A stretch of 64,000 nt of DNA from an uncultured Kordiimonas sp. (GTDB lineage Bacteria > Pseudomonadota > Alphaproteobacteria > Sphingomonadales > Kordiimonadaceae). The notes below the pieces were generated by a model. It ran no database searches, had not been told where the DNA came from, and worked only from the letters and a program-made list of their open reading frames with translations. Made by a program: the position numbers and the translations under genes. This document shows, piece after piece, positions 3,466 through 21,420 of the stretch. The stretch's first letter is position 1. Each line of letters opens with the position of its first letter. Location: NCBI GenBank assembly GCA_947503625.1, contig CANNEK010000002.1, positions 930,001-994,000 on the forward strand. The letters are read 5' to 3'.

Positions 3466-5268
3466 ATGACAGACCAGAAACATATCCGCAATTTCTCGAT
3501 TATTGCGCACATTGACCACGGTAAATCCACGCTGGCGGACCGTATGATCCAGACCACCGGCGCGCTCTCCTCCCGCGAGATGCAGGCGCAGGTGCTGGAC
3601 AGTATGGATATCGAGCGCGAGCGCGGCATCACCATCAAGGCACAGACCGTGCGGCTGGACTATAAAGCCGCAGACGGCGAGCAGTATGTACTGAACCTGA
3701 TGGACACGCCCGGCCATGTGGATTTTGCCTATGAGGTCAGCCGCTGTTTGTCGGCATGCGAAGGCTCGCTCCTGGTGGTGGATGCATCGCAGGGCGTGGA
3801 AGCACAAACACTGGCAAACGTGTATCAGGCTATCGAGAACGACCATGATATCGTGCCGGTCCTGAACAAGATCGACCTGCCTGCTGCCGAGCCAGAGCGC
3901 GTGCGCACGCAAATCGAAGATGTGATCGGCATTGATGCGTCGGATGCCATCGAATGTTCTGCCAAGTCCGGCATCGGCATCGATGATGTGCTGGAGGCCG
4001 TGGTCACCCGCCTGCCAGCCCCCGAAGGCAATCCGGATGCGCCCTTGAAGGCCATGCTGGTCGATAGCTGGTATGACACATACCTTGGCGTGATGGTTCT
4101 TATTCGGGTGATTGACGGCACCATCAAGAAGGGTCAGCTTATCAAAATGATGGCGGCGGGCACCGAGCACCAGATCGAGCGTGTGGGTGTGTTTACCCCC
4201 AAGGGTGTGCAGGTGCCATCGCTTGGCCCCGGCGAGGTTGGCTTTTTCACCGCCAGCATCAAGGAAGTCGCCGACACTAATGTGGGCGACACCATCACTG
4301 ACGCCAAAAAACCATGCGCAGAAGCATTACCCGGTTTTAAACCAAGCCAGTCTGTGGTGTTTTGCGGCCTGTTCCCGGCTGATACATCAGAGTATGAGCA
4401 GCTCAAGGAAGCGCTGGCCAAACTACGGCTGAATGATGCCAGTTTCGAATTTGAAACCGAAAGCAGCACAGCGTTGGGTTTTGGTTTCCGCTGCGGCTTT
4501 CTTGGCATGCTGCATCTGGAAATCATTCAGGAGCGTATCACTCGCGAGTTTGACATAGAGCTGATCACCACCAGCCCCAGCGTGATTTACAAAATTCATC
4601 TCACCAACGGTGACATGCTTGAGCTGCACAACCCGGCCGACATGCCCGACGTGGTGCGGGTGGACCATATCGAAGAACCCTGGATTGATGCCACCATTCT
4701 GGTGCCGGACGAGCATTTGGGCACGGTGTTGAAGCTGTGCGAAGACAAGCGCGGTATCCAGCAGGACCTGACATATGTGGGCGCGCGCGCCATGCTGAAA
4801 TACAAGCTGCCGCTCAATGAAGTGGTCTATGATTTTTACGACAGGCTGAAGTCGGTTAGCCGCGGCTATGCCAGCTTCGATTATGACATGGCAGGCTACG
4901 AGCAGTCAGACCTTGTGAAGATGTCCATATTGGTGAACGCAGAGCCTGTGGATGCCTTGTCGATGCTGGTGCACCGTACACAGGCTGACAGCAGGGGCCG
5001 CGCCTTGTGCGAGCGCCTGAAGGACCTGATCCCCCGCCAGCTGTTCAAAATTCCGATACAGGCGGCCATTGGCGGCAAGGTTATCGCCCGCGAAACCATC
5101 AGCGCCATGCGCAAGGACGTGACCGCCAAATGTTACGGCGGCGATGTGACGCGCAAGAAAAAACTGCTGGAGAAGCAGAAGAAGGGCAAGGCCAAGATGC
5201 GCATGTATGGCAAGGTGGAAATCCCGCACAGTGCCTTCATCGCTGCCCTCAAAATGCGCGAGAATTAA
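3466..5268 (+). CDS. lepA: Elongation factor 4 (LepA), ribosome back-translocating GTPase
   Basis: Translational GTPase EF4/LepA, 600 aa from the ATG at 3466, matching the usual 597-603 aa. The P-loop AHIDHGKST lies at residues 14-22, followed by switch motifs ([15 protein letters not shown]) and NKIDLP. The C-terminal LepA-specific domain ends with the typical lysine-rich segment and KMREN. In-frame starts further upstream (TTG 3430, ATG 3439) would add a tail not seen in the family and have no better ribosome site. Its stop is only 6 bp from the stop of the convergent lysR gene. A second, diverged copy of its last 48 bases sits at 7058-7105 and a decayed piece of the preceding segment at about 11440-11549, so the 3' end has been a recombination point. 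Confidence 0.97.
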
Positions 5269-5274
5269 AGACGC

Positions 5275-6189
5275 TTACAACGTTCCAATGCCGTGGATTT
5301 TTTCCACGGCAGCCGCCATATGGTCGATGAACAGTTTCAAGCGCTTGGGCTGCCACTTTGATGGCAGATAGGCGGCATTGAGTTTGAGCGATGGGGCACG
5401 CCAATCAGGCAGAAGGTCCACAAGAGTGCCGTTTGCGAGATCTTCTTCGACAAACCAGCGTGGCATTACAGCGAAGCCAAGGCCATTTCGAGCCGCCAGA
5501 CGTGCGGAGAAGATGTTGTTTGTTGTGAGGGAGGCTTGAGCCTTTACGGTCGCCCGTTCGCCATCGCGTGCGGTGAGGCCGATCGTGGTACCTTCAAAAG
5601 CCGACAGCGATACGCATGGAATATCGCAAACGCTTTCCGGTCTTTCAGGAAATTGTTCAGCGAGCAATGATGGAGCAGCGACCAAAAGCCGTTCAATATC
5701 ACCAATCGGACGCGCAATCAGGGTGTCGTCTTTAGGTTTGCCGACGCGAATCCATAAGTCCGCCCCCATTTCCGCAAAGCGGATTTCATCGTCATCCAAA
5801 AGCCATGTCAGCGCCACGCCAGGATATTGAGCTTGAAATGAAACGGCCGCAGTTGCCATTCGAGTCTGGCCCAATGCGACCGGCGCGAAGACTTTCAGCG
5901 CACCTTCGACTTTACCCCTGTCGGTTTTGTGGGTTTCTTCAAACTGATCCCATCCCGCAAGCAGGGTTTTTGCATCCGCCAGACAGGCTTTGCCAGCCGC
6001 TGTCAGGCTGAGCGTGTGAGTGGTGCGCCGAACAAGGTCTGAACCAAGCCGGGCCTCAAGGTCCGCGAGTTGACGACTGGCGGATGCTTGTGAAAGACCA
6101 AGGTCCCGTGCTGCAGCGGAAATCGAACCTCTTTCTGCAATGCGAGTGAAGGTGGTTAACAGTGTCAGGCGGTCAAGGCTTTTGCTCAT
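5275..6189 (-). CDS. LysR family transcriptional regulator
   Basis: LysR-type regulator, 304 aa from the ATG at 6189 (an upstream in-frame start at 6207 would add six residues ahead of the normal MSKSLDRL beginning). The N-terminal winged helix-turn-helix carries the family pattern SISAAARDLGLSQASASRQL, followed by the linker helix and the effector-binding domain from about residue 90. It is divergent from an aldo-keto reductase gene 104 bp away, with an ACGT-containing inverted repeat at 6188-6202, so that gene is the likely target. The stop lies 6 bp from the lepA stop. It belongs to the cassette bounded by duplicated lepA 3' ends. The effector is unknown. Confidence 0.92.
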   Translation of the reverse strand: MSKSLDRLTLLTTFTRIAERGSISAAARDLGLSQASASRQLADLEARLGSDLVRRTTHTLSLTAAGKACLADAKTLLAGWDQFEETHKTDRGKVEGALKVFAPVALGQTRMATAAVSFQAQYPGVALTWLLDDDEIRFAEMGADLWIRVGKPKDDTLIARPIGDIERLLVAAPSLLAEQFPERPESVCDIPCVSLSAFEGTTIGLTARDGERATVKAQASLTTNNIFSARLAARNGLGFAVMPRWFVEEDLANGTLVDLLPDWRAPSLKLNAAYLPSKWQPKRLKLFIDHMAAAVEKIHGIGTL

Positions 6190-6202
6190 ACGTAATACGT
6201 AT
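6188..6202. promoter_or_regulatory. Inverted repeat at the lysR start (candidate operator)
   Basis: Arms ATACGT and ACGTAT separated by AAT. The repeat overlaps the lysR start codon in the divergent lysR/akr region, as expected for autoregulation and control of the neighbour by a LysR-type protein. Confidence 0.5.
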
Positions 6203-6293
6203 AGCAAAAACTCGTGTCAGCCGTCTACCAAGTATAGGACAATTCGCTCATCTTGGCTTCAACAGACCACCCAACTCAGATGGAGCAAGGAAG

Positions 6294-7058
6294 ATGAAAC
6301 AGACATTCAAAATCGGCGGAAACCTTGAAGTGAACCGGCTTGGCTATGGTGCCATGCGCCTTACCGGCCAGCCGGGCAATTTCGGGCCCTATGAGAATTG
6401 GGACCAAGGCATTGCGCTGGTTCGACGTGCCTACGAACTGGGCGTAACGTTTTTTGATAGCGCATGGGCCTATGGACCGGAACATGCGGACCGACTGGTC
6501 GGCGAAGCCCTGGAAGGATTGCCGGCGGTTATTGCGACCAAAGGTGGTGTCGACAAACCGGCGCCAGGCAATATTGTCGTGGATGGCTCACGCGACGCAT
6601 TGTTACGGCAAATCGACCAAGCACTGGTCAACCTGCGTGTTGATCAAATCGACCTGTTTCAATTGCATCGGGTTGACCCTAACACGGACATCGAAGTTTC
6701 CATTGAAGCGCTTGCTGAGGCTGAAGCAGATGGTCGCATCCGGCACATCGGTCTTTCCAACGTCAGCCGAGACGGTTTGGACCGTGCTCTGAAGGTCGCA
6801 CCGATCGCAAGTGTTCAGAATCGTTTTAATAGTGCGGAGAGCGCTGACGCTGCTCTAGTGGACTATACCACCTCGCTTGGCATCGCCTACATTCCATACG
6901 GTCCACTGGGCGCCCATCCCATGCAGCAAGGGGCGAAACTTGCACCCGCAGATGCACTGCAGTGGTTGCTTGAGCGCTCTCCCAACATCGTGGTTATTCC
7001 AGGCACAACGTCGATTGCTCACCTGGAAGACAACATGACGGCTCTCCAGGTTGCATAA
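6294..7058 (+). CDS. Aldo/keto reductase
   Basis: NADPH-type aldo/keto reductase with a (beta/alpha)8 fold, 254 aa, somewhat shorter than the common 280-330 aa. The tetrad is present: Asp55 and Tyr60 (FFDSAWAY), Lys83 (ATKGG) and His125 (LFQLHR). A late IPGTTS motif matches the cofactor-binding segment. The start at 6294 has a strong upstream GGAGCAAGGAAG; upstream in-frame codons would overlap the divergent lysR start and are not family-like. Probable target of the adjacent LysR regulator. Its stop codon shares its last base with a degenerate lepA tail, marking the right end of an inserted cassette. The substrate cannot be predicted. Confidence 0.92.
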   Translation: MKQTFKIGGNLEVNRLGYGAMRLTGQPGNFGPYENWDQGIALVRRAYELGVTFFDSAWAYGPEHADRLVGEALEGLPAVIATKGGVDKPAPGNIVVDGSRDALLRQIDQALVNLRVDQIDLFQLHRVDPNTDIEVSIEALAEAEADGRIRHIGLSNVSRDGLDRALKVAPIASVQNRFNSAESADAALVDYTTSLGIAYIPYGPLGAHPMQQGAKLAPADALQWLLERSPNIVVIPGTTSIAHLEDNMTALQVA

Positions 7059-7105
7059 TTCCTCACAGCGCCTTCGTCGCCGCCCTTAAAATGCGCGATA
7101 CTTGA
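7058..7105 (+). pseudogene. Displaced lepA 3'-end remnant A
   Basis: 48 bases aligning without gaps to the last 48 bases of lepA (5221-5268), with 9 differences. Translated in the lepA frame it reads IPHSAFVAALKMRDT and a stop, against [15 protein letters not shown] in the intact gene. Six of the nine changes are synonymous, including the stop codon, so it diverged under selection as a real lepA tail before ending up here without its body. It begins on the last base of the akr stop codon. Confidence 0.85.
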
Positions 7106-7229: not shown

Positions 7230-7748
7230 GTGCCAGACGTGTTTATCGGGCAGATCAAATCGTGGGGTTATGGCTTTTGCCCTCAAGGGTGGTTGCCTTG
7301 CGATGGCCGGACTATTTCCTTGGGCCAGAATGACGGAAAATACAACGCGCTGATCAGCATTATCTGGGACCGATATGGCGGAGATGGTCGAACGACTTTT
7401 GCCTTGCCGGACTTGAGGGCACGTGTGCAAATGGGCCAGGACTGGAGCACGGCTCAGCTCGCCGCACGAGGCGGTGAAGCGAGCAATGTGATGAAGCAAA
7501 CGCCTTCCCATCAGCATTATTTCAGTATTATGGAAGGCACTGGTGTCGAGGAGGAGCCTGCTGGTAATATGCTGGCAAGCTCTATTGCGACCGGTGACGA
7601 ATATTTTTTCAGCTCTGTGCAAGATACCACGTTGCACCCAGATACCGTCAAAAATGCAGGTGCGTCAGCCCCAATCGACAACATGCAGCCCTATCTGGCG
7701 GTAAACTATTGCATCAACTGGGATGGCTATTATCCGCAACGAAACTAG
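7230..7748 (+). CDS. Phage tail collar domain protein 1 (microcystin-dependent-protein type)
   Basis: Small tail-collar-domain protein (Pfam Collar, COG4675-like), 172 aa. The N-terminal fold signature is clear: IGQIKSWGYGFCPQGWLPCD, then RYGGDGRTTFALPDLRARV and a MGQ turn. The C-terminus ends with the shared QPYLAVNYCI segment. A GTG at 7230 with GAGGGGAG eight bases upstream is preferred to the GTG at 7221, which would overlap that ribosome site. First of three tandem paralogues (gaps 21 and 11 bp), probably one operon from the promoter at 7158. No other tail genes are nearby. Family members are of uncertain function; suggestions include surface or tail-like structures. Confidence 0.88.
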   Translation: MPDVFIGQIKSWGYGFCPQGWLPCDGRTISLGQNDGKYNALISIIWDRYGGDGRTTFALPDLRARVQMGQDWSTAQLAARGGEASNVMKQTPSHQHYFSIMEGTGVEEEPAGNMLASSIATGDEYFFSSVQDTTLHPDTVKNAGASAPIDNMQPYLAVNYCINWDGYYPQRN

Positions 7749-7769
7749 CCCGCGATAGAAGGACGAAGC

Positions 7770-8378
7770 ATGACCGAAGACACACCCGCTCCCACGCCAG
7801 AGCCACCACCACCACCACCACCCCGTCCGAAAGTGGAAGCCTATTTAGGTGAAATAAGGCTTATACCGTTTCCCTTCGCGCCGGTTGGCTGGTTTTTTTG
7901 CGACGGCACATCTTTGCCCATCAACGGCTATGACGCCCTTTTTGCTGTTATCGGCACCACCTATGGTGGCGATGGCAGAACCTTTTTTAACCTGCCTGAC
8001 CTGAGAGGGCGTGTGCCGGTTGGGATGGGGCAAAATGATGGACTTAACTTGCGTTTGGGGCAAACCGGCGGCCGGGAAACTGTCCAGCTGACCACTGATA
8101 ATCTGGCGCCCCACTCTCATACTATCAACGCGTATAAGGCCACAGACAAGTATCCTGTGGAAGGGTCCAATGCCTTTCCCGGAGTCAGTGAGACAGCGGT
8201 CAATGGCCGCAGCAACCCCACTCTCTGTTACGTGGAGGCAGGCGACACGCTCACGACACTGGATCAGGAAACGTTGGAGCCAAATCGCACAGTAGGTGAG
8301 GAGTTCCTCAACCTGCAACCCTATCTGACGCTTAATTATATTATTGCTGTTGAAGGGCTGTTCCCGCCACGCAGTTAA
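7770..8378 (+). CDS. Phage tail collar domain protein 2, with polyproline N-terminus
   Basis: Second tail-collar paralogue, 202 aa. An N-terminal tail of about 25 residues is rich in Pro, Glu and Thr and includes a run of eight prolines, which would make translation dependent on EF-P. The collar signature follows: YLGEIRLIPFPFAPVGWFFC, YGGDGRTFFNLPDLRGRVP and GMGQ. It is the closest of the three to the family consensus. The end NLQPYLTLNYII matches its neighbours. It sits 21 bp after the first gene and 11 bp before the third. Presumed same operon and structure; role unknown. Confidence 0.9.
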   Translation: MTEDTPAPTPEPPPPPPPRPKVEAYLGEIRLIPFPFAPVGWFFCDGTSLPINGYDALFAVIGTTYGGDGRTFFNLPDLRGRVPVGMGQNDGLNLRLGQTGGRETVQLTTDNLAPHSHTINAYKATDKYPVEGSNAFPGVSETAVNGRSNPTLCYVEAGDTLTTLDQETLEPNRTVGEEFLNLQPYLTLNYIIAVEGLFPPRS

Positions 8379-8389
8379 GGAAACAGGGT

Positions 8390-8956
8390 ATGGATGACTA
8401 CTATATTGGTGAAATCTGTGTTTTTGCCGGAAACTTTGCCCCACGCGGCTGGGTTTTTTGCGCTGGCGGATTGCTGTCTATCGGCGAATATCAAGCGCTT
8501 TACTCTCTCATCGGAACATACTATGGCGGCGATGGCCGGGTAAGTTTTGGTGTGCCTGATCTGCGACAGCGAGTGACCGCCCACAGGAAGACAGACGATC
8601 CCTATTTTTACTTTCCCCGATATGGGGGGACTCCAAGCAAACTGGTTACCAACACCCACATGCCTGCGCACACTCATGATGTCCAGGTGATGGAGGAGTT
8701 TGCATCCGCATCGGCTCCTGATCCGACCATGATGCTTGCCAATGGATATCGCAACAGCGGCCCACCGGTTCAGCGTAATAAAAAAATGTACGCCCTCAGA
8801 GACCCAAGCTTGCAGGCATGGCTCAATCCTGAGGCCGTTAGCGATGGCGGCGGCGGCGGCGTGGTAGAGCTGGACAATCACCAGCCGTATCTCGTGTGCA
8901 ATTATATCATTGCCACTGATGACGTGCCGGATGCAGTCTACCCCAACAGGTCGTGA
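8390..8956 (+). CDS. Phage tail collar domain protein 3
   Basis: Third tail-collar paralogue, 188 aa, start ATG at 8390 after AAGGAAACAGGGT. It carries the collar signature (YIGEICVFAGNFAPRGWVFC, YGGDGRVSFGVPDLRQRV) but replaces the usual GQ-rich turn with a charged segment, and has a five-glycine run before the final DNHQPYLVCNYII. It is the most divergent of the three, which suggests specialisation after duplication. The operon appears to end here; a CNNM-type gene converges from the right. Confidence 0.88.
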   Translation: MDDYYIGEICVFAGNFAPRGWVFCAGGLLSIGEYQALYSLIGTYYGGDGRVSFGVPDLRQRVTAHRKTDDPYFYFPRYGGTPSKLVTNTHMPAHTHDVQVMEEFASASAPDPTMMLANGYRNSGPPVQRNKKMYALRDPSLQAWLNPEAVSDGGGGGVVELDNHQPYLVCNYIIATDDVPDAVYPNRS

Positions 8957-9052: not shown

Positions 9053-10420
9053 CTATTCTGCCCTACGCCCTTCAGGGGTATCGCCGGACGGAAGCAGGTC
9101 CATCTGGTCGGGGTCGATCCCGAGCTTTTGCGCACGGGCCTGCCACTGTTTGCGCGCAAGGATGCGCATGTCTTTAACGTCATCCATTTCGTCCATGATC
9201 TCCATGCCCAGAAGCGCTTCGATCACATCCTCGAGCGTGACAATGCCCTTTGTGCCGCCATAGTCATCCACCACCAGCGCAATATGCTGCCTGCTGTCGA
9301 GAAAATGCTCCAGCAAATCCGGCAGCGACATGGCCGCCGCCACCCGCCTGATATCACGCCGTATGGCATCAAGCCCGGTGGTGCCTTCCCGGTCGGCGGC
9401 CAGCGCAAGAACCTCGTCTTTCAGCACCACGCCGGTGATATCGTCGATGTCGCGCCCGTAAACCGGCAGGCGGGAGAACACCGTTTCCATAATCGCCTTC
9501 GCCGCCTCCGACACGGAAACACCGGCCTGAAGCGCGGCAACAACCGTGCGCGGTGTCATGATATCTTCAGCCTTCAGGGAACTGAAGCGGATCAGGTTCC
9601 TGACAATGCGCGCCTCGTGCGCCTTGATCTCGCCGCTGCGCTCGCCGATGCTGGTCATGGCCAGAAACTCGTCCCGGCTGAACAGATGCACACTTTTGCC
9701 GCGCGCGATCAGTTTGGTCAGCCCTTCTGAAAGCCATATCAGTGGATAGAGAAGCTTGATGGAAATACGGATGAAAAAGGCGGTGGGCCCCACCAGATGC
9801 GGCCAGTAAACCGCGCCGATGGTTTTTGGGATGATTTCCGACAGAAACAATATCGCCAGCGTCATCGCGCCTGAAAACAGGCCGATCCACGCGCTGCCGA
9901 ACACCACAGTGGCCTGCGCCCCGGCGGCAATGGCCCCCACCGTGTGGGCAATGGTGTTCACGGTTAAAATCGCCGCGAGCGAACGGTCCACATTATCCTG
10001 CCGCAAGCGTTTCAGCATGTCGGCGCGCTTTGGTTCGCTGGTGCGCAGCTTTTCAATGAAAGACGGCGTGATGCTGAGCAGCACCGCTTCGGCGACCGAG
10101 CAGACAAAGGAAAAGCCCAGCGCGCCGGTAACGAACAGCACCAGCAGCCATATGTCGCCCTGAGTTACCTGAGTGGCCAGCGTTGCCAGCGTTGCCTGAG
10201 TCGCCTGAGTTACGGCTTCGCCGCCTGCCTGCGCCAGCGCGGGTGATGCGCCCGCAAGGTACAGGCCCGCCAGCAGCAATGCGGCGCGCTTACGCCAAAC
10301 CCGGCCCCAAACCCGGCCCCAGGCCCCATCCCAAACCCGGCCCCATCCCATGCGCTGCACACACGCCCGGCCTGCCTTGCTGAAAAGGGTGCCAACTGTT
10401 CCTGAAGCGTGTCTGGTCAT
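9053..10420 (-). CDS. CNNM/HlyC-CorC family membrane protein (DUF21 + CBS pair)
   Basis: Integral membrane protein with a DUF21/CNNM transmembrane domain (about residues 90-250) and a CBS-domain pair (about 265-405), as in Mg2+/Co2+ transport or efflux proteins of the CNNM/CorB group, 455 aa. The EIIPKTIGA motif is the DUF21 hallmark. The final CorC-HlyC transporter-associated domain is missing or very short. The N-terminus is odd: a four-residue repeat (GRVW type) precedes a signal-like stretch ending near ALAQA, followed by a T-Q-A/L-A-T low-complexity linker. Both are coded by short in-frame tandem DNA repeats, so the true start could be internal (for example ATG at 10354). Ion specificity is not visible. 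Confidence 0.88.
   Translation of the reverse strand: MTRHASGTVGTLFSKAGRACVQRMGWGRVWDGAWGRVWGRVWRKRAALLLAGLYLAGASPALAQAGGEAVTQATQATLATLATQVTQGDIWLLVLFVTGALGFSFVCSVAEAVLLSITPSFIEKLRTSEPKRADMLKRLRQDNVDRSLAAILTVNTIAHTVGAIAAGAQATVVFGSAWIGLFSGAMTLAILFLSEIIPKTIGAVYWPHLVGPTAFFIRISIKLLYPLIWLSEGLTKLIARGKSVHLFSRDEFLAMTSIGERSGEIKAHEARIVRNLIRFSSLKAEDIMTPRTVVAALQAGVSVSEAAKAIMETVFSRLPVYGRDIDDITGVVLKDEVLALAADREGTTGLDAIRRDIRRVAAAMSLPDLLEHFLDSRQHIALVVDDYGGTKGIVTLEDVIEALLGMEIMDEMDDVKDMRILARKQWQARAQKLGIDPDQMDLLPSGDTPEGRRAE
10161..10215. repeat. 9-bp in-frame tandem repeat in the CNNM gene
   Basis: About six degenerate 9-bp units encoding a TQA/TLA-type linker between the signal-like segment and the first membrane helix of the DUF21 domain. 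Confidence 0.6.
10297..10344. repeat. 12-bp in-frame tandem repeat in the CNNM gene
   Basis: Four 12-bp units; three are AAACCCGGCCCC and one is a variant. On the minus strand they encode GRVW repeats at the N-terminus. Confidence 0.7.
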
Positions 10421-10502
10421 GCGCTGTGTTTCCGTATGGTTGCTGTTTCGCCCTGTTTACACGGATTTGCCGCCGATACCTATCCAGATATCTTTTCTGG
10501 TG

Positions 10503-10538
10503 CGGTTATCGTTTCTGGCCCGGTTATCGTTTCAGGAG
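10503..10538. repeat. Two 18-bp direct repeats upstream of the CNNM gene
   Basis: CGGTTATCGTTTCTGG occurs at 10503-10518 and again with one change 18 bp later, in the intergenic region before the DUF169 gene. Confidence 0.5.
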
Positions 10539-10580
10539 CGGGGCGAGCGCGGGGCAGGTAAGGGCGGGGCGGGCTGTCGT

Positions 10581-11363
10581 TCAATAGCTTGCCGCCATGC
10601 CGGCGCGCACATCCTGCTGGATGCCATATTGCGCAAACGGATAGCGAAAGCCGTTTTTGGCCAGCGCCTTCATGCCGGTGATCGCTTTTTCCAGCGGCCC
10701 GACCGGCAAGGCCATCAGCATCTCGTCGTCCAGCACACCGCCGTATCGGCGTTCGGCAAAGCAGGGGATGGAAAGCGAAGGTTCCTTTAGTTTCAGCGCC
10801 CGGCCCCAGCTGTCGGCACAGGCACTTTCGCCCACCACCGACCAGTCAAACCGCTTGTAACCGGTCCATTGCAGCCCGTTGATAAAATACATCATCGCGC
10901 CCGGCGTGGCATAAAAAAGCACAATATCCGGCGGGTCCAGCCTGCCCGAGGCCAGCGGCGAAACCGCCAGCGCTTCGTATTTGCCGTCTTCCACACAGTG
11001 CATCGCCGCCTGATGCGCGGCGGCACTTTCATCGTCTTCGAACCAAACCCCTTTCATATGCTGGCCAGAGCGCCACGCCGGGTCTTTGGCGTTGCCAAGG
11101 CCCACAACCGCGCGGCACTGTGCGCCCACAAGGTCGTCGCTGGTGATGCCCACGGTCCAGCCAAGCCGGGATGCCTGGCCAACGATCTGGTCCAGTGTAT
11201 GGATGTCGCTTGGCCGCCTGATTTTTTCAATTGCTTCCATATCGGATGCGCGTTCGAACATTTTCATGCCAAACGGGATCGACCGCAGCTTCAGCAGGGT
11301 TTGCAGTTCTGTTGCCAGCGTTGCGGGGTTCGGTGTTTCAGGATTCGGTGTTTCAGGGTACAT
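10581..11363 (-). CDS. DUF169 family protein
   Basis: Resembles the DUF169 (COG2043) family, 260 aa from the ATG at 11363, placed 7 bases from GGAGGAG; the adjacent ATG at 11366 is also possible. Family-like features are the early segment on use of a substrate-like region (IPFGMKMFERASDM), the middle GRLDPPDIVLFYATPGAMM and the late Cys-containing IPCFAERRYG. The first residues are a duplicated ETPNP coded by a 15-bp direct repeat. No function is established for the family, although members are often found near metal or redox proteins. It is a single gene on the minus strand, 160 bp upstream of the CNNM gene, and may be co-transcribed with it. A decayed lepA fragment begins about 75 bp upstream of its start. 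Confidence 0.7.
   Translation of the reverse strand: MYPETPNPETPNPATLATELQTLLKLRSIPFGMKMFERASDMEAIEKIRRPSDIHTLDQIVGQASRLGWTVGITSDDLVGAQCRAVVGLGNAKDPAWRSGQHMKGVWFEDDESAAAHQAAMHCVEDGKYEALAVSPLASGRLDPPDIVLFYATPGAMMYFINGLQWTGYKRFDWSVVGESACADSWGRALKLKEPSLSIPCFAERRYGGVLDDEMLMALPVGPLEKAITGMKALAKNGFRYPFAQYGIQQDVRAGMAASY
11326..11355. repeat. 15-bp direct repeat at the start of the DUF169 gene
   Basis: Two adjacent 15-bp units (GGGTTCGGTGTTTCA and GGATTCGGTGTTTCA) that duplicate five codons. Confidence 0.65.
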
Positions 11364-11439
11364 CATCTCACTCCTCCAGATTACCAGAGACTTGAGCGCA
11401 AAACAGGCCGCCAATCAAGGGCCGATCAAAAGGGTGGGG

Positions 11440-11549
11440 TGTGGCAAGCGACGATCGCGGGAATTAGAGTAAGCCATGCGCAAGGACAAGAGTATGGTAG
11501 CGGCGTGACCCGAAAGAAGATGCTTCTGGAGAAGCGTGAAAAGGGCTAG
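11440..11549 (+). pseudogene. Decayed lepA C-terminal fragment B
   Basis: Fifteen bases at 11473-11487 are identical to lepA 5104-5118. After a small deletion, the next segment reads YGSGVTRKKMLLEKREKG and a stop, against [19 protein letters not shown] in LepA (14 of 19 residues). Weaker similarity appears to continue upstream to about 11440. The two parts are in different frames, so the fragment is non-functional. It corresponds to the region just before that of remnant A, and is more decayed. Confidence 0.8.
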
Positions 11550-11638
11550 AATCGCACCATTGTCGATGGCGGGGGCCCGCCTTATACAAAGCAGTAAGGC
11601 TAACCGCTTCTATAAGAAACGATGATGAGGACAAGACC

Positions 11639-12142
11639 ATGCCAACACAGCAGTTACCTGAAACGCCGCTAACGGCAGAAAGCCATGTTGTGGCCGGGCG
11701 CTGGGTGCTGAGCTTTGCTGCGCCCACGATTTTCTTCTATCAGCATTCTTTGCCGCCCGGGAAATGGCCCGTTCTAAAGTATGTGGTTGAAGGCTGGGAT
11801 GATGCGGTAGCATGGTCATTGCTGTTGAACGCGAACGCAGTCGCTTTCGTGGTTTTTTTGATTTTAGCATTCAGGTTTTTTGCCCAAAGCAGGGCTAAAT
11901 CCCTTGCGCAGCAGATAAGGGACATCATTGACGACCTGAATGACCAAGCAGACCCTCAATACGGCAGGCCTTCGCGCCCCTATGATGAGTTTGAGCAGTT
12001 TACCGCCAAGCATGAAGGGAAAAAGAAAACCTTTCAAAAGCTTGCTGCGGGTATTCACGTGGCTTTTTCCAACGTGGTCCAATTGGTGCTGCCCTTCGTG
12101 CTCGGTGCATACGCGATGGTTATCCTTGTTTTCCTGAATTGA
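11639..12142 (+). CDS. Hypothetical membrane protein
   Basis: Not recognised. 167 aa, start ATG 11639 with GATGAGG upstream. Hydrophobic segments lie at about residues 22-36, 57-82 and 145-166, with a charged, probably cytoplasmic, middle part (about 83-140) containing QQIRDIIDDLNDQ and many Lys/Glu. There is no signal cleavage site. It converges on the HTH-Nudix gene, with 131 bp between. Codon use looks normal for a real gene and the ribosome site supports it, but no homologous family comes to mind. Confidence 0.7.
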   Translation: MPTQQLPETPLTAESHVVAGRWVLSFAAPTIFFYQHSLPPGKWPVLKYVVEGWDDAVAWSLLLNANAVAFVVFLILAFRFFAQSRAKSLAQQIRDIIDDLNDQADPQYGRPSRPYDEFEQFTAKHEGKKKTFQKLAAGIHVAFSNVVQLVLPFVLGAYAMVILVFLN

Positions 12143-12273
12143 TGCGCTATGCCCCAATTGCCACCGTGCCTGCCATCATGCGGCGGGCAAGGCGGAGGTT
12201 AAAGCGCGGTTGATTAAGAAGGTTTCAAGATTGAATGCCTACTGATCAGCGGGACTAGGTCGCCCATTTTTGG

Positions 12274-13596
12274 CTAATAATAGTCGAACGTTCGCATTGC
12301 ACAGGCGATACCCGAAGACCAAATTGGATACTGCGTAAAGGTGCTTTCCAACTGTTCTTTGTCAAAAGGGTGTGCGCGTATGGTTTGATTTTCCTTGCGG
12401 TCCTTGGCTTTCTGCCAAGCGCTATAGATCGTGTCAAAATCAAGATCCACTTCGGCGAAACCAATGAAGTTCCATTGATAAAACTCCAGATCACAGCCAA
12501 ACTCGAATACCACAAGGCGTTTGATAACCTGCTCAATATCAACGCCAATGGTCTTGCTGTCCAGACCAAGTTCCTCAGAAAGAGCCCGTCGGGCGACCGT
12601 CATTACATCGACCTTTCCCTCTTCCATATCCCCCTGCGGTCTGATCCCCTCCACCACTGCAACATCATATTCGCCTTTCCTGAAGGTCTCATGGTCGGAC
12701 CGTTGCCCCAGAACGATTGATTTCCCATCATCACAGATCACGTTCAGGCAAATACCGACGCCAGAGGCCAGATAAGGTACAGGTTTGATAGGGTGAGTGG
12801 CGTCCTGAAGTTCCTGCCACCGAAAATCAGCCCCTGCTTCCTGCTTTGCAATTACATTGTAGCGATACCAGGATTGCTTCATCGTCAGGGCAATCAAATT
12901 ACGTTCTTCAGCATCATTTGAAAGCGTGCTCACAACAGAGGCGAGACAAAAAGTTCTATTGTCCGACCATCCCCTGATTCCATTTTTTTTGCGTTCTTCG
13001 TTTTGTATACTTACGTCATTTGCCCTTTTAACAAACAGATCAGGCGGAATGACTTCTTCGTCGTCTCCAAATATGGAAACCTCCCCGGCCCGAAATCCTC
13101 CCTCACCAGATTTTTCGCTTTCAATCCATGTGGTGGTGTGGTCGCCTAACCGATAGGCGTCTCGGATCAATGGACCGAACTCTCCCAGCGCAAGGTTCCT
13201 GTGCCGCCATTTTTGAATAAGATGTGGGTTGGCACCCGGGTTGGCGTTTAGGTTTGGGTCAAGAAGGACATTTTCCACGTCATCTTCACTGAGCCCGTAG
13301 CTTCTTAGAAGAGCCTTTAAAATAAGTTCAGAAGGGGCCCGTTTTTGGCCAGCTTCTATGCGCCGAATACCATCTGCGCTGATATCGATACCTGTGACTT
13401 TTTTTACCCATTTAGAGGCTTCCATGCGAGACATTGAAGAACCCAATTCGGCGGCATGTTTTCTGAAAAGCTCATGTGCATCAGGGTTAGGCGTCCGTGT
13501 TTGAACTGAATTCCGCAAAGCCAGCAATAACCTGCCTATCCTCGAAGGCTGCCGTTTTATCTCTCCTGTTCTTTTGTCTTTTGTCGATTCTTTCAT
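12274..13596 (-). CDS. HTH (XRE-like) regulator fused to a Nudix-like domain
   Basis: 440 aa. Residues about 56-100 form an XRE-like helix-turn-helix (SADGIRRIEAGQKRAPSELI). The middle (100-270) is unassigned. The C-terminal part (about 278-400) looks like a Nudix fold, with a degenerate Nudix box ending ARRALSEELGL (Arg336 onward): the REUxEExGU pattern is kept except that the first Glu is Ala, and the upstream Glu is not in register. This suggests ligand binding rather than full hydrolysis, as in Nudix-type regulators such as NrtR. It is divergent from a 2OG-Fe dioxygenase gene 106 bp away, the probable target. Local base composition is AT-richer than in the flanks. The ligand is unknown. 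Confidence 0.68.
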   Translation of the reverse strand: MKESTKDKRTGEIKRQPSRIGRLLLALRNSVQTRTPNPDAHELFRKHAAELGSSMSRMEASKWVKKVTGIDISADGIRRIEAGQKRAPSELILKALLRSYGLSEDDVENVLLDPNLNANPGANPHLIQKWRHRNLALGEFGPLIRDAYRLGDHTTTWIESEKSGEGGFRAGEVSIFGDDEEVIPPDLFVKRANDVSIQNEERKKNGIRGWSDNRTFCLASVVSTLSNDAEERNLIALTMKQSWYRYNVIAKQEAGADFRWQELQDATHPIKPVPYLASGVGICLNVICDDGKSIVLGQRSDHETFRKGEYDVAVVEGIRPQGDMEEGKVDVMTVARRALSEELGLDSKTIGVDIEQVIKRLVVFEFGCDLEFYQWNFIGFAEVDLDFDTIYSAWQKAKDRKENQTIRAHPFDKEQLESTFTQYPIWSSGIACAMRTFDYY

Positions 13597-13702
13597 TCAA
13601 AACCCCCATCCAAAAAAAGAGTCAAATATTGGGCTGTCTTCAAGGTCGATCGATTAAGGCAGTCTGTTCCTGACAGCACAATAAAACAAAGGAGCAATCG
13701 TC

Positions 13703-14398
13703 ATGATTACAATGATCAAGAAATTAACATTCGAAGATGATGGCATAGAAATCTTCAAAGAGGCAAGTTTGCAGGACACCAGCTTTTTGGCATTTGCCGC
13801 ACGTGTGTTCGGGGAATTGTCACCTGCCAAAAATGCGGTCAACAAGCTTAGTCGAGGTATTCGCTGGGGAGTCTTGGCTAACTCGAAAATCACGTGGCTT
13901 GACCGTAACAGCTATCGCCTGGATGCATCCCTGAACAAACAGGAGGCGGGCAGAACTCGCGAGTTCGATTTACTGCCCATAGAGTTTGTCACGCATCCCA
14001 TAGTGCAAGGCGTTATCATGCGTGCGTTTGAAAGGATGCGTTTCGACGTGTCTTCTGAAACGAGGGCCTTCGAGATTCAACTGTCTGCGATCCGTTACAA
14101 TGTCTCGAACGCAAACAGCGCAGAACCTTCGCCGCCTGAACCGCATCAGGACAGTGTTGATGGCAGCGTTATTGTGATTAACGAGCACAATGTGTTCCGG
14201 CCCGAAAACCGGATTTATGATTTGGACAATCAGCCGCTTTTTGCCTTCACCCTGAAGCCATCCGAAGGCTTCCTGCTTAAGGATGATCGTTACAAGCATC
14301 AGGTGGTGCCTCATGTGTTTCAAGCCGACCGTTGGCCCGATGAAGACAAGGGGTTTCGCGATATCATTATTATCCGCTTTCAGCCAGTTGGCCGTTGA
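13703..14398 (+). CDS. 2-oxoglutarate/Fe(II) dioxygenase family protein (PF10014-like)
   Basis: 231 aa. Matches the 2OG-Fe dioxygenase family that includes the free L-isoleucine and related amino acid hydroxylases. Iron ligands can be placed: His148 and Asp150 in EPHQDSVDG, and a distal His199 in DDRYKHQVVP (His204 is an alternative). Arg219 in FRDIIIIRF would bind 2-oxoglutarate. The segment VIVINEHNV with the following IYD is typical of the family. Start ATG 13703 has AAAGGAG eight bases upstream. It is followed by a hairpin terminator (14446-14465). Divergent from the HTH-Nudix regulator, so expression is probably ligand-controlled. Free amino acid hydroxylation is inferred from the family; the substrate is not visible. 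Confidence 0.8.
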   Translation: MITMIKKLTFEDDGIEIFKEASLQDTSFLAFAARVFGELSPAKNAVNKLSRGIRWGVLANSKITWLDRNSYRLDASLNKQEAGRTREFDLLPIEFVTHPIVQGVIMRAFERMRFDVSSETRAFEIQLSAIRYNVSNANSAEPSPPEPHQDSVDGSVIVINEHNVFRPENRIYDLDNQPLFAFTLKPSEGFLLKDDRYKHQVVPHVFQADRWPDEDKGFRDIIIIRFQPVGR

Positions 14399-14445
14399 AG
14401 CGATCAGTGGCATGGCGTTTACACAACGGGCAACAGAGAGACCAG

Positions 14446-14469
14446 ATGGCCCTCACGAGGGCCATTTCT
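14446..14469 (+). terminator. Terminator after the dioxygenase gene
   Basis: 8-bp perfect stem ATGGCCCT/AGGGCCAT with a 4-base loop, followed by TTCT; 48 bp after the stop codon. Confidence 0.6.
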
Positions 14470-14509
14470 GCTTCTGTTACAACGAAGGAAAACTTCGGAA
14501 TTATAGCGA

Positions 14510-14740
14510 CTATTTCTTCAGGCGGACGCCGGGGCCGCCGCCGTTTTGGAAAATGAACTCGACGCCTGCGCTTTCCATGTAGCTTTGCAGCTTCTGGATT
14601 GTTGAAGCCTTGGCGTCAGCACCGTTTTCATAGCGGCTGATTGTATTGGCGGTTACACCGGTTTTTTCTTCCAAAGCCCGCAAGCTTATTCCCAGTGCTG
14701 TTCTTCCCAGTTTGACGTGCAATCCAGTAATCATCCGCAT
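14510..14740 (-). CDS. Small XRE family helix-turn-helix protein
   Basis: 76 aa. Single-domain Cro/C1-type HTH: LRALEEKTGVTANTISRYEN is the classic helix-turn-helix with the SRYENG end of the recognition helix, and the C-terminal VEFIFQNGGGPGVRL is the tail often seen in small chromosomal XRE regulators. The start is placed at ATG 14740; ATG 14734 (MITGLHVKLG) is equally plausible because no strong ribosome site decides it. It has no toxin-like neighbour. The upstream region to 14942 has AT-rich inverted repeats that could be its operator, and the next gene (pseudo-nucleotidyltransferase) is divergent. Confidence 0.85.
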   Translation of the reverse strand: MRMITGLHVKLGRTALGISLRALEEKTGVTANTISRYENGADAKASTIQKLQSYMESAGVEFIFQNGGGPGVRLKK

Positions 14741-14942
14741 ACTGCCCAAATCAATGTATCATATTGACAATAACCACATGTATTTGTACAATATCCAAAT
14801 ACAGAGGTGCTTTAACCATAAACATTAGGGCATTCTGTATATAAATTGATTGTAAATCAATGCGTTCGCGAGAATTCGGACCATGAAGGTGCTGGTACAC
14901 CGACATGGCCCTAACCACAACCAACCTTTATAGGAGGTCGGC
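14741..14942. promoter_or_regulatory. AT-rich divergent control region with inverted repeats
   Basis: 202 bp between two divergent genes. It holds TTGTACAA (8-bp palindrome near 14785) and an inverted repeat ATTGATT/AATCAAT at 14845-14861 with a 3-base spacer. It is strongly AT-rich compared with the flanks, as expected of a promoter/operator region bound by the small XRE protein. A strong AGGAGG ribosome site precedes the gene at 14943. Confidence 0.5.
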
Positions 14943-15950
14943 ATGGCTGATCACACGTCTATCACAGACACCACACCACAACCAACCGTAGAAACACCGC
15001 CAAATCAATCTTCCGGGTCATCACCCGAACCGGCACCACCTTTTGGAACAGCCGAACCGCCGCAAGCGCTAACCCCTTATTATATCCGGGGGCGGGTAAA
15101 CCAAAGCCTGCCATCAGATCGCTGGAAAACCCGGCTGGCGCTGTTCACCAAAATCATCCTGCAAACCTTCGCCGGGCATACCGCCAAACGCCACTATAAG
15201 CCGCGCAACCAGCGGCGCATCCGCCAGATTATCCTGCACGGCGCCCATGCAGACGAACAGATGATCACCCGCAAGGGCGAGCCTTACATGATGCTCGTGA
15301 CCGTCAACAAGCTGCCGCACGATATTGACACGCTTCTGGCCACCATCACCGCAATCATCCACGCGCGCTGGGGCATGCATGTCCACATTCATCTGATGCG
15401 CGCCCGGCAGTTCAAGCGCGGGTTCAGACGAGCCAGCCCCTTTTACAAGGCGCTGACCGTGTGCAGTGAAGTGCTGTATTCAGATGGCGGCAACCACCCG
15501 ATTATGCCGCCTGTGGTTATGGCTGCCCCGGTTTTATCGCCCGGCGGGGCGGGGGCAGAAGCCCCGATAATGGCAAAGGTCATCACGCCGGATAAAAGGC
15601 CGGAAAGAAAACCGGATCACCCTGAAAAGGAAGCAGACGAGCCCGCCGAAACTCCTGCCGAAAACCCGGATGACAAAAAACCGTGGTGGGATGCGCCCGA
15701 TATGCGCGGTTACAAAGCCGCCTACGACCGCGAGCATGGCGGCCTTTCAACCGACGACATCATGATGGACATGGAAGAACCGATTGTGCGGCTGAATGAT
15801 GCGGCTGTTTTACTGACCGACCTTGCTTACGGCGGCATGCACGATGTACCCCCCCGCGCCAAGGGCCTCGATTTTATCGCGCAGGCGCTGACCCGCGACG
15901 CCCGGCTTCTGTACCGGCTGTATAATGGCCACGCGCCCAACTATCATTAA
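14943..15950 (+). CDS. Degenerate nucleotidyltransferase (MNT)-like protein
   Basis: 335 aa. The region from about residue 55 to 185 resembles the MNT half of HEPN-MNT type proteins: a leading helix starting LPSDRWKTRLALF, then IRQIILHGAHADE where active members have I-LFGSxARGD, and EPYMMLVTVN where active members have SDxDLLVxVN, and later ASPFYKAL with a following VLY. Both catalytic motifs are lost (no GS, no Asp pair), so the protein is probably inactive as a nucleotidyltransferase. The first 45 residues and residues 215-255 are Pro/Glu-rich linkers. The C-terminal 80 residues are unassigned and do not look like HEPN. Start ATG 14943 follows AGGAGGTCGGC. The family assignment is by pattern only. 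Confidence 0.6.
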   Translation: MADHTSITDTTPQPTVETPPNQSSGSSPEPAPPFGTAEPPQALTPYYIRGRVNQSLPSDRWKTRLALFTKIILQTFAGHTAKRHYKPRNQRRIRQIILHGAHADEQMITRKGEPYMMLVTVNKLPHDIDTLLATITAIIHARWGMHVHIHLMRARQFKRGFRRASPFYKALTVCSEVLYSDGGNHPIMPPVVMAAPVLSPGGAGAEAPIMAKVITPDKRPERKPDHPEKEADEPAETPAENPDDKKPWWDAPDMRGYKAAYDREHGGLSTDDIMMDMEEPIVRLNDAAVLLTDLAYGGMHDVPPRAKGLDFIAQALTRDARLLYRLYNGHAPNYH

Positions 15951-16830: not shown

Positions 16831-16942
16831 GGCCTTTGTGCTCGGGCCTTTGTGCTCAGGCCTTTGTGCTCAGGCCCTGAAACTCAAGCCCTGATCGCCA
16901 AACACTGAAACCGAAGCCTGTGTGCTCAGGTCTCGATGGTCA
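16831..16942. repeat. 14-bp tandem repeat running across a stop codon
   Basis: Eight consecutive 14-bp units. The first three are GGCCTTTGTGCTCG/A, nearly identical; later ones are increasingly diverged. The last two extend over the stop codon and final codons of the OxyR-like gene (stop at 16926-16928). Confidence 0.8.
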
Positions 16943-17858
16943 AATCCGGGAAATGATTTTTGATAACCCCGCGGATCACCTCTGCCAGTTGATGGTACGC
17001 CGGTGCGCGGCCTGCGCTTTTGCGCCATACCAGCCCCACCGAGCGGGTGACGGTGCGGTCATGCAGTTTCTTGACCACAACCTCGCTGCGCTCTGAAATC
17101 TCTGAATGCACATAAAGCGCAGGCAGGAAGGTGACACCCATGCCCATGCCAACCATGGTGCGCAGGGCATCAAGGCTGGTGCCTTCATAATCGCGCAGGC
17201 GCACCGCGCCGTAATCACGGCACAGGGCGCTGATCTGGTCGTGAAGGTGATAATTCGGGCTAAGCGACAGCACCTGCAGGCCTTCGAGGTCTGCGGTGGT
17301 GACCTTGTCATTTTCCGCCAGCGGATGGTCAACCGCCATTGTCAGATACAGAGGCTCGCGGAACAGGCGGCAGGTGACCAGTTCGCCCCCGGTGACCGGC
17401 ATCTGCGCCAGAATGACATCATGCAGGCCCTTGTGCAGTTCGTGCACCAGATCCTGCGGCGGGGCTTCGCGCAGATAAAGGTTCAGTTCGGGATGGTCCT
17501 TGTGCAGCTTGGCAACCACATGCGGCAACAGGTAGGGGCCCAGTGTTGCTTTGGCGCCAAGCCGAATGGTGCCCACCAGGCCATGCTGTGCGCCGGCCGT
17601 GAAATCGATAATACCCTGCAGTTCGTCTACCACGCGCCGGGCGCGGGCGCTGACTTCCCGGCCGACCGGCGACAGGGCAACGCCGGACCGGTCGCGTTCA
17701 ACAAGCCTGACGCCGAGCACATCTTCAAGATTCTGGATTTGGGCACTGAGAGACGGCTGACTGATATTGCAGGCTTCAGCAGCATAACGGAAATGTTTGG
17801 CGTCTTCGAGGGCGACCAGATAGCGAAGTTGTTTCAGGGTCAGTTTGTTAATTTGCAT
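16926..17858 (-). CDS. OxyR-like LysR family regulator lacking the peroxidatic cysteine
   Basis: 310 aa, closest to the OxyR branch of LysR-type regulators. The winged HTH lies in the first 65 residues (ISQPSLSAQIQNLEDVLGV). The effector domain keeps OxyR segments such as GTIRLGAKATLGPYLLP and GTSLDALRTMV. OxyR senses H2O2 through Cys199 and Cys208 (E. coli numbering, GHCLRDQ). Here the aligned segment is NYHLHDQISALC: Cys199 is replaced by His204, while the second cysteine is kept (Cys213). Peroxide-driven disulfide switching is therefore unlikely. A LysR-type palindrome (17898-17914) and a divergent promoter lie just upstream. The 3' end is overrun by a 14-bp tandem repeat. Confidence 0.9.
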   Translation of the reverse strand: MQINKLTLKQLRYLVALEDAKHFRYAAEACNISQPSLSAQIQNLEDVLGVRLVERDRSGVALSPVGREVSARARRVVDELQGIIDFTAGAQHGLVGTIRLGAKATLGPYLLPHVVAKLHKDHPELNLYLREAPPQDLVHELHKGLHDVILAQMPVTGGELVTCRLFREPLYLTMAVDHPLAENDKVTTADLEGLQVLSLSPNYHLHDQISALCRDYGAVRLRDYEGTSLDALRTMVGMGMGVTFLPALYVHSEISERSEVVVKKLHDRTVTRSVGLVWRKSAGRAPAYHQLAEVIRGVIKNHFPDLTIET

Positions 17859-18341: not shown

Positions 18342-18421
18342 AGCACTCATCACATCCTGCTTGCATCTTGGTCCCGGAATATCCTTAAATGCAGCGGGGG
18401 TTGTCCTGTGGTGACATCGCG

Positions 18422-19258
18422 ATGAAAAAAATTCTTTCGTTCTTTTTGGCTTTTGGGTTTGTGCTGGCTGTGTCCGGGCCTTCGCATGCTCAAAAACTGG
18501 TTGATACAGAAGACCCGCGGCAGCTGGCTCTGGATATCTATTCCAACGTGAACAGGGCTGCACCACCGGCGTCAATTGCTGTTCGGCTTCAAACCCTTGT
18601 GCGTGTTTTCCGCTATCGATGCACACGGTTGACCGACTATCAGGTGTTCACTCAGCGCACCAATATCATTGACTTCAAGGTCAAATGCAGTGGCGATTCC
18701 CTTTACGGTGTGACGGTGGCGTCCAACGGTTATGTTTCGGTTTATGGCGGTAACGGCATTATCTCCAGTTTCAACCGAACTGACGGGTTGATCTTTATCT
18801 TTGACAACGAAGGTGACCTTGCGGGCGACCGCTCGCTGACAGTTGAGCAGGCCGTTGGCGAGACGGTGGACAGGCTTGAACTGGAAGACGAAGTCAACGT
18901 TGTTTATGTGATGGGCACGGTTGCAACGATGCTCGGTTTTCTTATGGTGTTCGGTCTCATCTGGTGGCGGGCCTGGAAGTACAAGCAAACCCGGAAACCG
19001 CGCCAGCGCATGAAGCCCATGAGCAAGCACAGAGTCAGTGCATCAAGCAATGACAAGGATGTGTACCTCGAAGAAAGTGAAGAGGTTGCGAAGAATGTTT
19101 TCAAGCATCCACGAGGGTTCTTCATCGCTCGTGGCAAACGTGGCAAACGGCGATTTTTTTCGAGTGCCTTCTGGGCGAGAGTGTACGCAACCCGCGGGTG
19201 GAGATTGTTTGAGATCAGCGCACCGAAACGCGAAGTTGCGGAAAGCAATCCGGTTTAA
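18422..19258 (+). CDS. Hypothetical exported, membrane-anchored protein
   Basis: Not recognised. 278 aa from ATG 18422 (an upstream in-frame start at 18389 would put 11 residues before the signal peptide and is rejected). A signal peptide ends near residue 24 (SHAQ). A probably extracytoplasmic domain covers about 25-165, with two cysteines in RYRCTRL and KVKCSGD that could form a disulfide. A single membrane helix follows near 168-188 (VMGTVATMLGFLMVFGLIWW), then a very basic tail of about 90 residues with KRGKRRFFSS. The layout suggests a surface or periplasmic sensor-like domain with a cytoplasmic basic tail. It follows a terminator and GGGGCCAGT repeats. Confidence 0.75.
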   Translation: MKKILSFFLAFGFVLAVSGPSHAQKLVDTEDPRQLALDIYSNVNRAAPPASIAVRLQTLVRVFRYRCTRLTDYQVFTQRTNIIDFKVKCSGDSLYGVTVASNGYVSVYGGNGIISSFNRTDGLIFIFDNEGDLAGDRSLTVEQAVGETVDRLELEDEVNVVYVMGTVATMLGFLMVFGLIWWRAWKYKQTRKPRQRMKPMSKHRVSASSNDKDVYLEESEEVAKNVFKHPRGFFIARGKRGKRRFFSSAFWARVYATRGWRLFEISAPKREVAESNPV

Positions 19259-21153: not shown

Positions 21154-21420
21154 GAAGTCCCCAATTAATCATCACGTTTATGCGCTGAGGCAGTGCCGCT
21201 GGAAGGGCAAGCCAGTTACCATAGCTTTACGCATCTGTCGCATAAAGTGCAATTTGATTCCCCAACTGGCTGTCTGAATTTAGGACTGACTCAAACTGAT
21301 TTGGTGATTTACTAGACCTTTGCAAGTGTCTGCGCGACTGGTAGGCTGTTTCTTTCAATGGCCCTTCCCATTTGACGTTCGGGTGTTAGGGCATTGTCAT
21401 TACAGATGGGGAGCGAAACA

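What the first reader, a model, noticed from the sequence alone, without database searches (positions are those of the whole stretch)
5221..7105. lysR-aldo/keto reductase cassette precisely framed by two lepA tails
The last 48 bases of lepA (5221-5268) recur at 7058-7105 with 9 differences, and both encode nearly the same C-terminus plus stop. The 1789 bp between hold only a divergent lysR/akr pair, with the convergent lysR stop 6 bp after lepA and the akr stop touching the second tail. The mostly synonymous differences mean the second tail comes from a lepA that evolved elsewhere or was displaced long ago. This is the signature of DNA added at the 3' end of lepA, without a visible recombinase.
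Basis: seen in the sequence. Interest (0 to 1): 0.75.

Follow-up and report, generated by a model that had tools for sequence, protein, structure and literature searches.

The report
Repeated gene capture behind lepA
Foreign genes have repeatedly been slipped in right behind a housekeeping gene (lepA), each time apparently giving it a new end and leaving the old end downstream as a scar, with no dedicated enzyme seen so far.

Summary
Confirmed and extended. The 48-bp copy of the lepA end at 7058-7105 is real (39/48 identical, E 2e-8). The window also holds an older lepA fragment at 11473-11549, and relatives G006 and G003 have their own displaced ends behind other genes. Across the order, 16 of 382 genomes with a detectable lepA end carry a second one on the same strand 0.1-1.9 kb downstream; for guaA it is 1 of 385. 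By alignment, 21 of 24 fragments in 113 loci end at the lepA stop, with starts varying from -39 to -273, which argues against one attachment site. In G234 the displaced copy is native and the live end divergent. In 14 of 18 genus members lepA lies 0.3-1.9 kb before a conserved gene; in the window and three relatives the gap is 6.7-13.1 kb. lysR-akr is 97% identical to G006 where lepA is 84%, so it moved horizontally. Best explanation: sequential one-sided homologous capture anchored in lepA (homology-facilitated illegitimate recombination or single crossover), like Rhs/T6SS displacement arrays but on a housekeeping gene. No recombinase was seen in limited scans; the mechanism is inferred, and which end is native in the window is open.

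The parts
3466..5268 (+). lepA (elongation factor 4), the anchor gene; its last 48 bp (5221-5268) are the functional tail
   Evidence: 84-86% nt to G003, G006, G014
5275..6192 (-). lysR-type regulator, stop 6 bp after lepA
   Evidence: Pfam HTH_1 and LysR_substrate; divergent partner of akr in 28 of the 32 homologous loci examined
6294..7058 (+). aldo/keto reductase, divergent from lysR; the VOC gene that follows it in G006 and in 8 other loci is missing here
   Evidence: Pfam Aldo_ket_red
7058..7105 (+). displaced lepA tail, 48 bp, 39/48 identical to 5221-5268
7230..8956 (+). three tail-collar domain genes (7230-7748, 7770-8378, 8390-8956), next cargo layer
   Evidence: Pfam Collar; no match in the downstream DNA held for 37 relatives
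9053..11414 (-). CNNM/CBS protein (9053-10420) and DUF169 protein (10581-11414), same layer
   Evidence: Pfam
11473..11549 (+). third, decayed lepA fragment (lepA -165..-78, 70%); similarity can be drawn from 11456
11639..15950 (.). outermost cargo: 167-aa protein without Pfam match (+), HTH/NUDIX-like protein (-, matches below cut-off), 2OG-Fe dioxygenase (+), 335-aa protein without Pfam match (+)
16926..17858 (-). LysR-family regulator kept next to p289 in the window, G003, G006 and G014
18389..19258 (+). p289, the conserved right-hand neighbour of lepA in the genus
   Evidence: 0.3-1.9 kb behind lepA in 14 of 18 genus members with a lepA
19540..23502 (.). EAL-domain gene (-, 19540-21153) and p702 (+, 21394-23502), continuing the conserved block

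Best explanation
The 3' end of lepA is a recurrent capture site for foreign DNA. Incoming DNA that carries the end of a related lepA plus whatever lies behind it pairs with the resident lepA by ordinary homology on one side. The other side is joined illegitimately inside the last roughly 40-270 bp of the resident gene (homology-facilitated illegitimate recombination), or a circularised fragment enters by a single crossover. lepA is restored with the donor's end, the cargo lands behind it, and the resident's old end stays downstream as a scar. Repetition stacks cargo between older scars: lepA / lysR-akr / 48-bp scar / collar genes, CNNM, DUF169 / decayed 77-bp scar / further genes / conserved neighbours. 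Shown: the scars, their stop-anchored but variable length, recurrence, the horizontal origin of lysR-akr, and in one genome (G234) that the scar is the native-like end. Inferred: the RecA-type one-sided mechanism, the order of events, and that no recombinase acts.
For: Scars recur in G000, G003 and G006 and in 15 further genomes of the order, 117-1859 bp apart start to start. By alignment 22 of 113 lepA loci have a same-strand fragment and none a reverse-strand one; 21 of 24 fragments end within 10 nt of the stop, with starts from -39 to -273. Other genes in the same loci: 2 of 418 have a stop-anchored copy, against 19 of 105 lepA genes in a set enriched by selection. guaA: 1 of 385 genomes with neighbouring copies, against 16 of 382 for lepA. 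In G234 lepA identity to three sisters falls from 88-90% to 75-81% at about -241 to -253, close to the start of its 228-bp scar; the scar is 92.5% identical to G169, the live end 82.5%. Two scars of different decay lie in the window (83%, then 70%) and in G157 (94%, then 86%). Cargo is mostly unrelated between genomes. In the window the similarity to G006 ends about 11 bp after the akr stop, where the DNA behind akr in G006 resembles the lepA end (best 13-base match 11, 11 and 10 against three lepA ends; 14, 13 and 112 of 300 shuffles as good). Ku is absent from G000, G003 and G006 and not clearly associated with scars (13 of 22 with, 10 of 22 without).
Against: For the window itself no hybrid breakpoint in lepA is visible (relatives only 84-86% identical), and it is undecided which tail is native. 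In G348, G157 and G119 the live end is closer to sisters than the scar; decay can explain this but does not prove displacement. In G238 the farther of two fragments is not more decayed (92.3% over 39 bp). No donor with lepA directly followed by lysR was found. In G234, G260 and G305 the foreign stretch begins close to where the scar begins, a coincidence that simple one-sided models do not require. Fragment lengths cluster mildly near 48-60 and 155-167. The microhomology is modest and fails against the G003 end. Three of 24 fragments (G035, G369, the second in G238) do not end at the stop.
Confidence: 0.66

Rival explanations
1. Site-specific integration: small elements or islands whose integrase uses the lepA 3' end as attB and restores it from attP; the recombinase acts in trans or has been lost.
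For: The topology is identical (new end at the gene, old end at the far side, possible tandem layers). The foreign stretch starts about where the scar starts in G234, G260 and G305. In close sphingomonad pairs the last 15 codons have a higher synonymous divergence than any body window (0.479; body mean 0.31, maximum 0.446; z 3.0), in more distant pairs 0.511 (z 2.1, maximum 0.526). guaA of G167 has a 33-bp copy of its end behind 0.46 kb of other DNA, which looks att-like.
Against: Scar lengths vary from 48 to 273 bp, with no shared core at their starts (20 pairs read by eye). No Tyr/Ser recombinase motif in ORFs of 113 loci (regex only). Inserts go down to 53 bp. The genus-type end is absent from viral contigs. 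One viral contig carries a whole lepA with methyltransferase and lysis genes behind it, but no repeat of the lepA end at E 0.001 or better in the roughly 10 kb held.
Confidence: 0.2
2. Local duplication: part of lepA was duplicated in place and the second copy decayed, with cargo inserted between later by other means.
For: Some cases have very short inserts (53-61 bp in G234, G260, G305, G317, G374). G494, in another order, shows plain tandem copies of the end plus the DNA behind it.
Against: Live and displaced ends differ mostly at silent sites in G234, as between two functional lepA genes, and there the live end is the foreign-looking one. 21 of 24 fragments end at the stop, which random duplications would not require.
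Confidence: 0.1
3. A chance or convergent resemblance, or a remnant of another GTPase gene.
For: Only 48 bp in the window.
Against: E 2e-8, 0 reverse-strand hits in 113 loci and fragments in 22 loci; LepA peptide with stop; matches only at lepA ends or scars.
Confidence: 0.01

Closest known systems
Vibrio T6SS effector-immunity arrays and Rhs C-terminal displacement (PMC5361080, passages read)
   Same: A conserved upstream part anchors incoming DNA, a new 3' part plus cargo is added, the old 3' part is pushed downstream, and repetition builds layered arrays; homology-facilitated illegitimate recombination was proposed there and no evidence of an integrase was reported.
   Different: There the anchor region leads into variable effector genes and the retained immunity genes may give an advantage. 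Here the anchor is a housekeeping gene whose protein end stays nearly the same, and cargo is mostly unrelated.
Homology-facilitated illegitimate recombination (PMC3240628, abstract and introduction read)
   Same: One homologous end, one illegitimate end, insertions of about 1 kb on average, 3-10 bp microhomology in most cases; the same paper reports single-crossover entry of circularised DNA.
   Different: Described in laboratory recombination, with insertions coupled to deletions; here the visible product is a duplicated gene end, as expected if only events that bring a replacement end survive (inference).
Site-specific islands at gene 3' ends (guaA and tRNA recalled; trmE in an abstract start)
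   Same: Gene end restored, old end left as a direct repeat.
   Different: Fixed crossover and element-borne integrase; neither seen here.
Integron cassette arrays (recalled; compared in a passage of PMC5361080)
   Same: New cargo enters next to the anchor and older cargo moves away.
   Different: No integrase seen near lepA; the separators are gene ends of variable length. attC-like sites were not searched for.

Membership tests
Homology-facilitated illegitimate recombination product | One side joined by homology, leaving a seamless hybrid gene | tested here: inconclusive
   Identity drop in G234 lepA near -241 to -253; no breakpoint visible in the window's lepA
Homology-facilitated illegitimate recombination product | Other side joined illegitimately at variable places, often with 3-10 bp microhomology | tested here: inconclusive
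   Variable places met (48-273 bp). Microhomology tested only in the window: 11, 11 and 10 of 13 against three lepA ends, 14, 13 and 112 of 300 shuffles as good
Homology-facilitated illegitimate recombination product | RecA dependence, uptake of linear DNA | not testable with these tools
   needs an experiment
Site-specific integrative element at lepA | Fixed-length repeated core at both ends | tested here: not met
   Lengths 48-273 bp in 21 tabulated events; no common start seen by eye in 20 aligned pairs
Site-specific integrative element at lepA | Integrase in or near the insert | tested here: inconclusive
   None by regex in 113 loci; none by Pfam among ten window proteins, ten cargo proteins of relatives and eight more; no profile scan of all loci
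Displacement arrays (Rhs/T6SS type) | Several displaced 3' parts in one array, older ones further away | tested here: inconclusive
   Two scars each in the window, G157 and G238; the farther one is more decayed in the window (83% then 70%) and G157 (94% then 86%), not in G238 (92% both)
Displacement arrays (Rhs/T6SS type) | Anchor is a polymorphic toxin or effector gene | tested here: not met
   Anchor is lepA

The most novel reading that the evidence does not exclude
The lepA end acts as a dedicated landing pad: small cargo units, several with toxin-antitoxin or restriction genes, carry a synonymously recoded lepA 3' end that serves as both homology arm and rescue sequence, and spread between species as integrase-free (or trans-recombined) cassettes across an order of Alphaproteobacteria.
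Probability: 0.15. Interest if true: 0.82.

Novelty: new variant of a known kind. Interest (0 to 1): 0.58.

Why it matters
It gives a layered record of gene capture anchored on a universal housekeeping gene, visible as scars of the gene's own end. It offers a natural test of how bacteria add wholly non-homologous genes without integrases, a process known mainly from laboratory recombination and from toxin loci. It would explain why lepA is followed by unrelated genes in close species, and the scar signature could be used to look for similar capture sites at other genes.

Tried and rejected
Chance similarity: rejected. A relative with lepA joined directly to the DNA after 7105: not found among 37 relatives. 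Hybrid breakpoint in the window's lepA: not resolvable. Ku-dependent end joining: no clear association. Site-specific element: disfavoured, not excluded. glnA as a second control was weak: its pattern exists in only 50 of 196 genomes, none with two copies. Class-wide lepA search: 42 of 152 genomes match, two with more than one match (G000, G494); G494 is a tandem repeat of the end plus the DNA behind it, a different thing. Sphingomonad lepA end in plasmid records: 29 records; of the 15 listed, 14 are over 0.8 Mb and four are annotated lepA at the match. In phage records: 10, all at E 0.05 or worse. Neither points to a vector. Literature for lepA as an integration site: the listings showed no such report in titles or abstract starts; PMC3976249 and PMC5502288 hold the word lepA once each beside integrase terms and were not opened.

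Results against the reading or weakening it: 19 of 89 genomes without a scar show a drop of identity at the lepA end; for 11 of the 19 the nearest sister is itself a scar genome, and 3 (G026, G028, G034) drop only in the last 19-27 nt, so few independent scarless cases remain (G394 the clearest). Excess synonymous divergence at the lepA end is not seen in the window's own family (0.551 against 0.509, z 0.9). guaA in one genome and two other genes show single cases. Two reverse-strand hits at E up to 0.01 appeared when six lepA queries were run on the 13 kb behind the window's lepA. In one search, G287 and G351, found by pattern, were not recovered; in G351 the upstream copy lies at a contig edge, so a whole lepA is not shown there.

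Odds left unchanged.
Full report
OBSERVATION. The last 48 bases of lepA (5221-5268) recur at 7058-7105 with 9 differences, 6 silent. Chance is excluded: 62.3 bits against at most -6.5 in 20 shuffled loci, E 2e-8 in its own downstream DNA, and no reverse-strand hit in 113 loci. In 29 family genomes the 48-bp part matches only lepA ends and the scars of G006 and G003. Between the two ends lie a LysR regulator and an aldo/keto reductase. A third, decayed lepA fragment lies at about 11473-11549 (lepA -165..-78, 70%, E about 1e-7 to 9e-7).

WHERE IT IS. The window is G000:C2:930001-994000. Its close relative G006 has a contig of the same length (1,669,692 bases) as the record titled uncultured Kordiimonas sp. 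isolate 2-78-G that holds the same akr (99%) with lepA and VOC around it, so the genus is most likely Kordiimonas. In 14 of 18 genus members with a lepA, the gene p289 follows 0.3-1.9 kb behind lepA, usually with an EAL gene and p702 after it. In the other four the gap is 13.1 kb (window), 12.4 kb (G003), 8.5 kb (G006) and 6.7 kb (G014), with largely different cargo. G014 carries a NaeI-like endonuclease, a C5 methylase and a GmrSD_N protein and no detected scar. A LysR gene next to p289 is kept in all four.

RECURRENCE IN THE GENUS. G006 has a 155-bp lepA fragment 1.7 kb behind lepA, after an HTH-like ORF (read by eye) and a CAAX-protease-like gene. G003 has a 39-48-bp fragment 1.1 kb behind lepA, after a gene with a weak hydrolase match. 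In the family, 3 of 29 genomes show a second end near lepA.

RECURRENCE IN THE ORDER. A strict pattern for the lepA end matched 382 of 396 genomes; 16, including G000, had two matches on one strand. In the 15 others the two lie 117-1859 bp apart, start to start. The same design for guaA matched 385 of 396 genomes: one had neighbouring copies (G167, 494 bp apart), one had copies on different contigs (G379). I then fetched 60 further lepA loci from genera that contain scar genomes. Aligning each lepA end to its own downstream DNA (up to 3 kb) gave a fragment in 22 of 113 loci: 13 of the 15 selected ones, 5 of the 60 sisters (G369 not stop-anchored), 3 of the 37 first relatives (G035 not stop-anchored), and the window. 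For other genes in these loci 2 of 418 had a stop-anchored copy, against 19 of 105 lepA genes (the lepA set is enriched by selection).

ANATOMY. 21 of 24 fragments end within 10 nt of the lepA stop, while their starts vary from -39 to -273. Of 21 events tabulated, inserts run from 53 to 1788 bp, median 573. Cargo is mostly unrelated between genomes: CcdA/CcdB in G218, ParE with PaaA2 in G238, a RadC-domain protein in G121, a Phenol_MetA_deg protein in G119. An exception is a DUF2283 protein with an unnamed partner, shared by G154 and G157 of two genera (67-69% alike). Live and displaced ends of G234 differ mainly at silent sites.

WHICH END IS NATIVE. In G234, lepA is 88-90% identical to three sisters up to about -241 to -253 and 75-81% after it; its displaced 228-bp copy is 92.5% identical to G169, the live end 82.5%. 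So there the live end was replaced and the native-like end lies downstream. For older events the scar has decayed and the test fails. In the window each end is closer to a different relative, so it stays open. A drop at the lepA end also appears in 19 of 89 genomes without a scar, but for 11 of them the nearest sister is a scar genome and 3 drop only in the last 19-27 nt; G394 is the clearest scarless case. In close sphingomonad pairs the last 15 codons are more silently diverged than any body window (0.479, mean 0.31), less clearly in distant pairs and not in the window's family. Relaxed codon use could contribute.

THE CARGO HERE. lysR-akr is an ordinary divergent module: of 71 akr loci returned I examined the first 32, and 28 have the LysR beside the reductase; 9 have the VOC gene behind it, G006 included. 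Many are from marine Alphaproteobacteria (by their names; habitat recalled). In G006 the module is 97% identical in DNA to the window copy while lepA is 84%, so it moved between lineages after they split. In the window the VOC gene is missing: the similarity to G006 ends about 11 bp after the akr stop, where the DNA behind akr in G006 resembles the lepA end. That is what an illegitimate join would look like, but the resemblance is modest (14, 13 and 112 of 300 shuffles as good against three lepA ends).

MECHANISM. Shown: scars, variable length, stop anchoring, layers, recurrence, horizontal cargo. Inferred: DNA carrying another lepA end recombined by homology on the lepA side and joined illegitimately inside the old end, so that lepA stayed whole. 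Events that did not bring a lepA end would break lepA and be lost, which could explain the stop anchoring. Homology-facilitated illegitimate recombination and single-crossover entry of a circularised fragment predict different extents of foreign sequence in lepA; the present data do not separate them. Ku is not required (absent from G000, G003, G006). An integrase acting in trans cannot be excluded; none was seen.

COMPARED WITH THE KNOWN. The closest described process is the displacement of old effector parts in Vibrio T6SS and in Rhs loci, for which homology-facilitated illegitimate recombination was proposed (PMC5361080, passages; PMC3240628, abstract and introduction). The difference is the anchor: a housekeeping gene whose product hardly changes. 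The literature listings showed no report of lepA in this role in titles or abstract starts; the library holds only open-licence papers.

Noticed in passing
L242 (IMG/VR contig), lepA at 11847..10036: A viral-collection contig holds a complete lepA (72% aa to the window's) followed by two methyltransferase-like ORFs (one confirmed by PHROGs), ORFs that read like a nuclease and a HTH/peptidase, and about 9 kb on phage Rz-like spanins; only part of the contig is held.
   Followed up: partly
G014 (L035), +83 to +3604 behind lepA: A NaeI-like restriction system (NaeI endonuclease, C5 methylase, GmrSD_N protein) sits directly behind lepA, with no lepA scar detected.
   Followed up: partly
L170 (G167 guaA): guaA has a 33-bp copy of its end 494 bp downstream behind a short stretch of other DNA, resembling an attachment site.
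   Followed up: partly
L167 (G494), around 2053: Three lepA ends in tandem with the DNA behind them repeated; a local tandem repeat unlike the other cases.
   Followed up: partly
G015 (L038), +1 to +16 behind lepA: A 16-nt near-copy of the lepA end directly abuts the lepA stop.
   Followed up: no
window 7230-8956: Three consecutive phage tail-collar domain proteins, about 30-33% alike, behind the displaced end.
   Followed up: no
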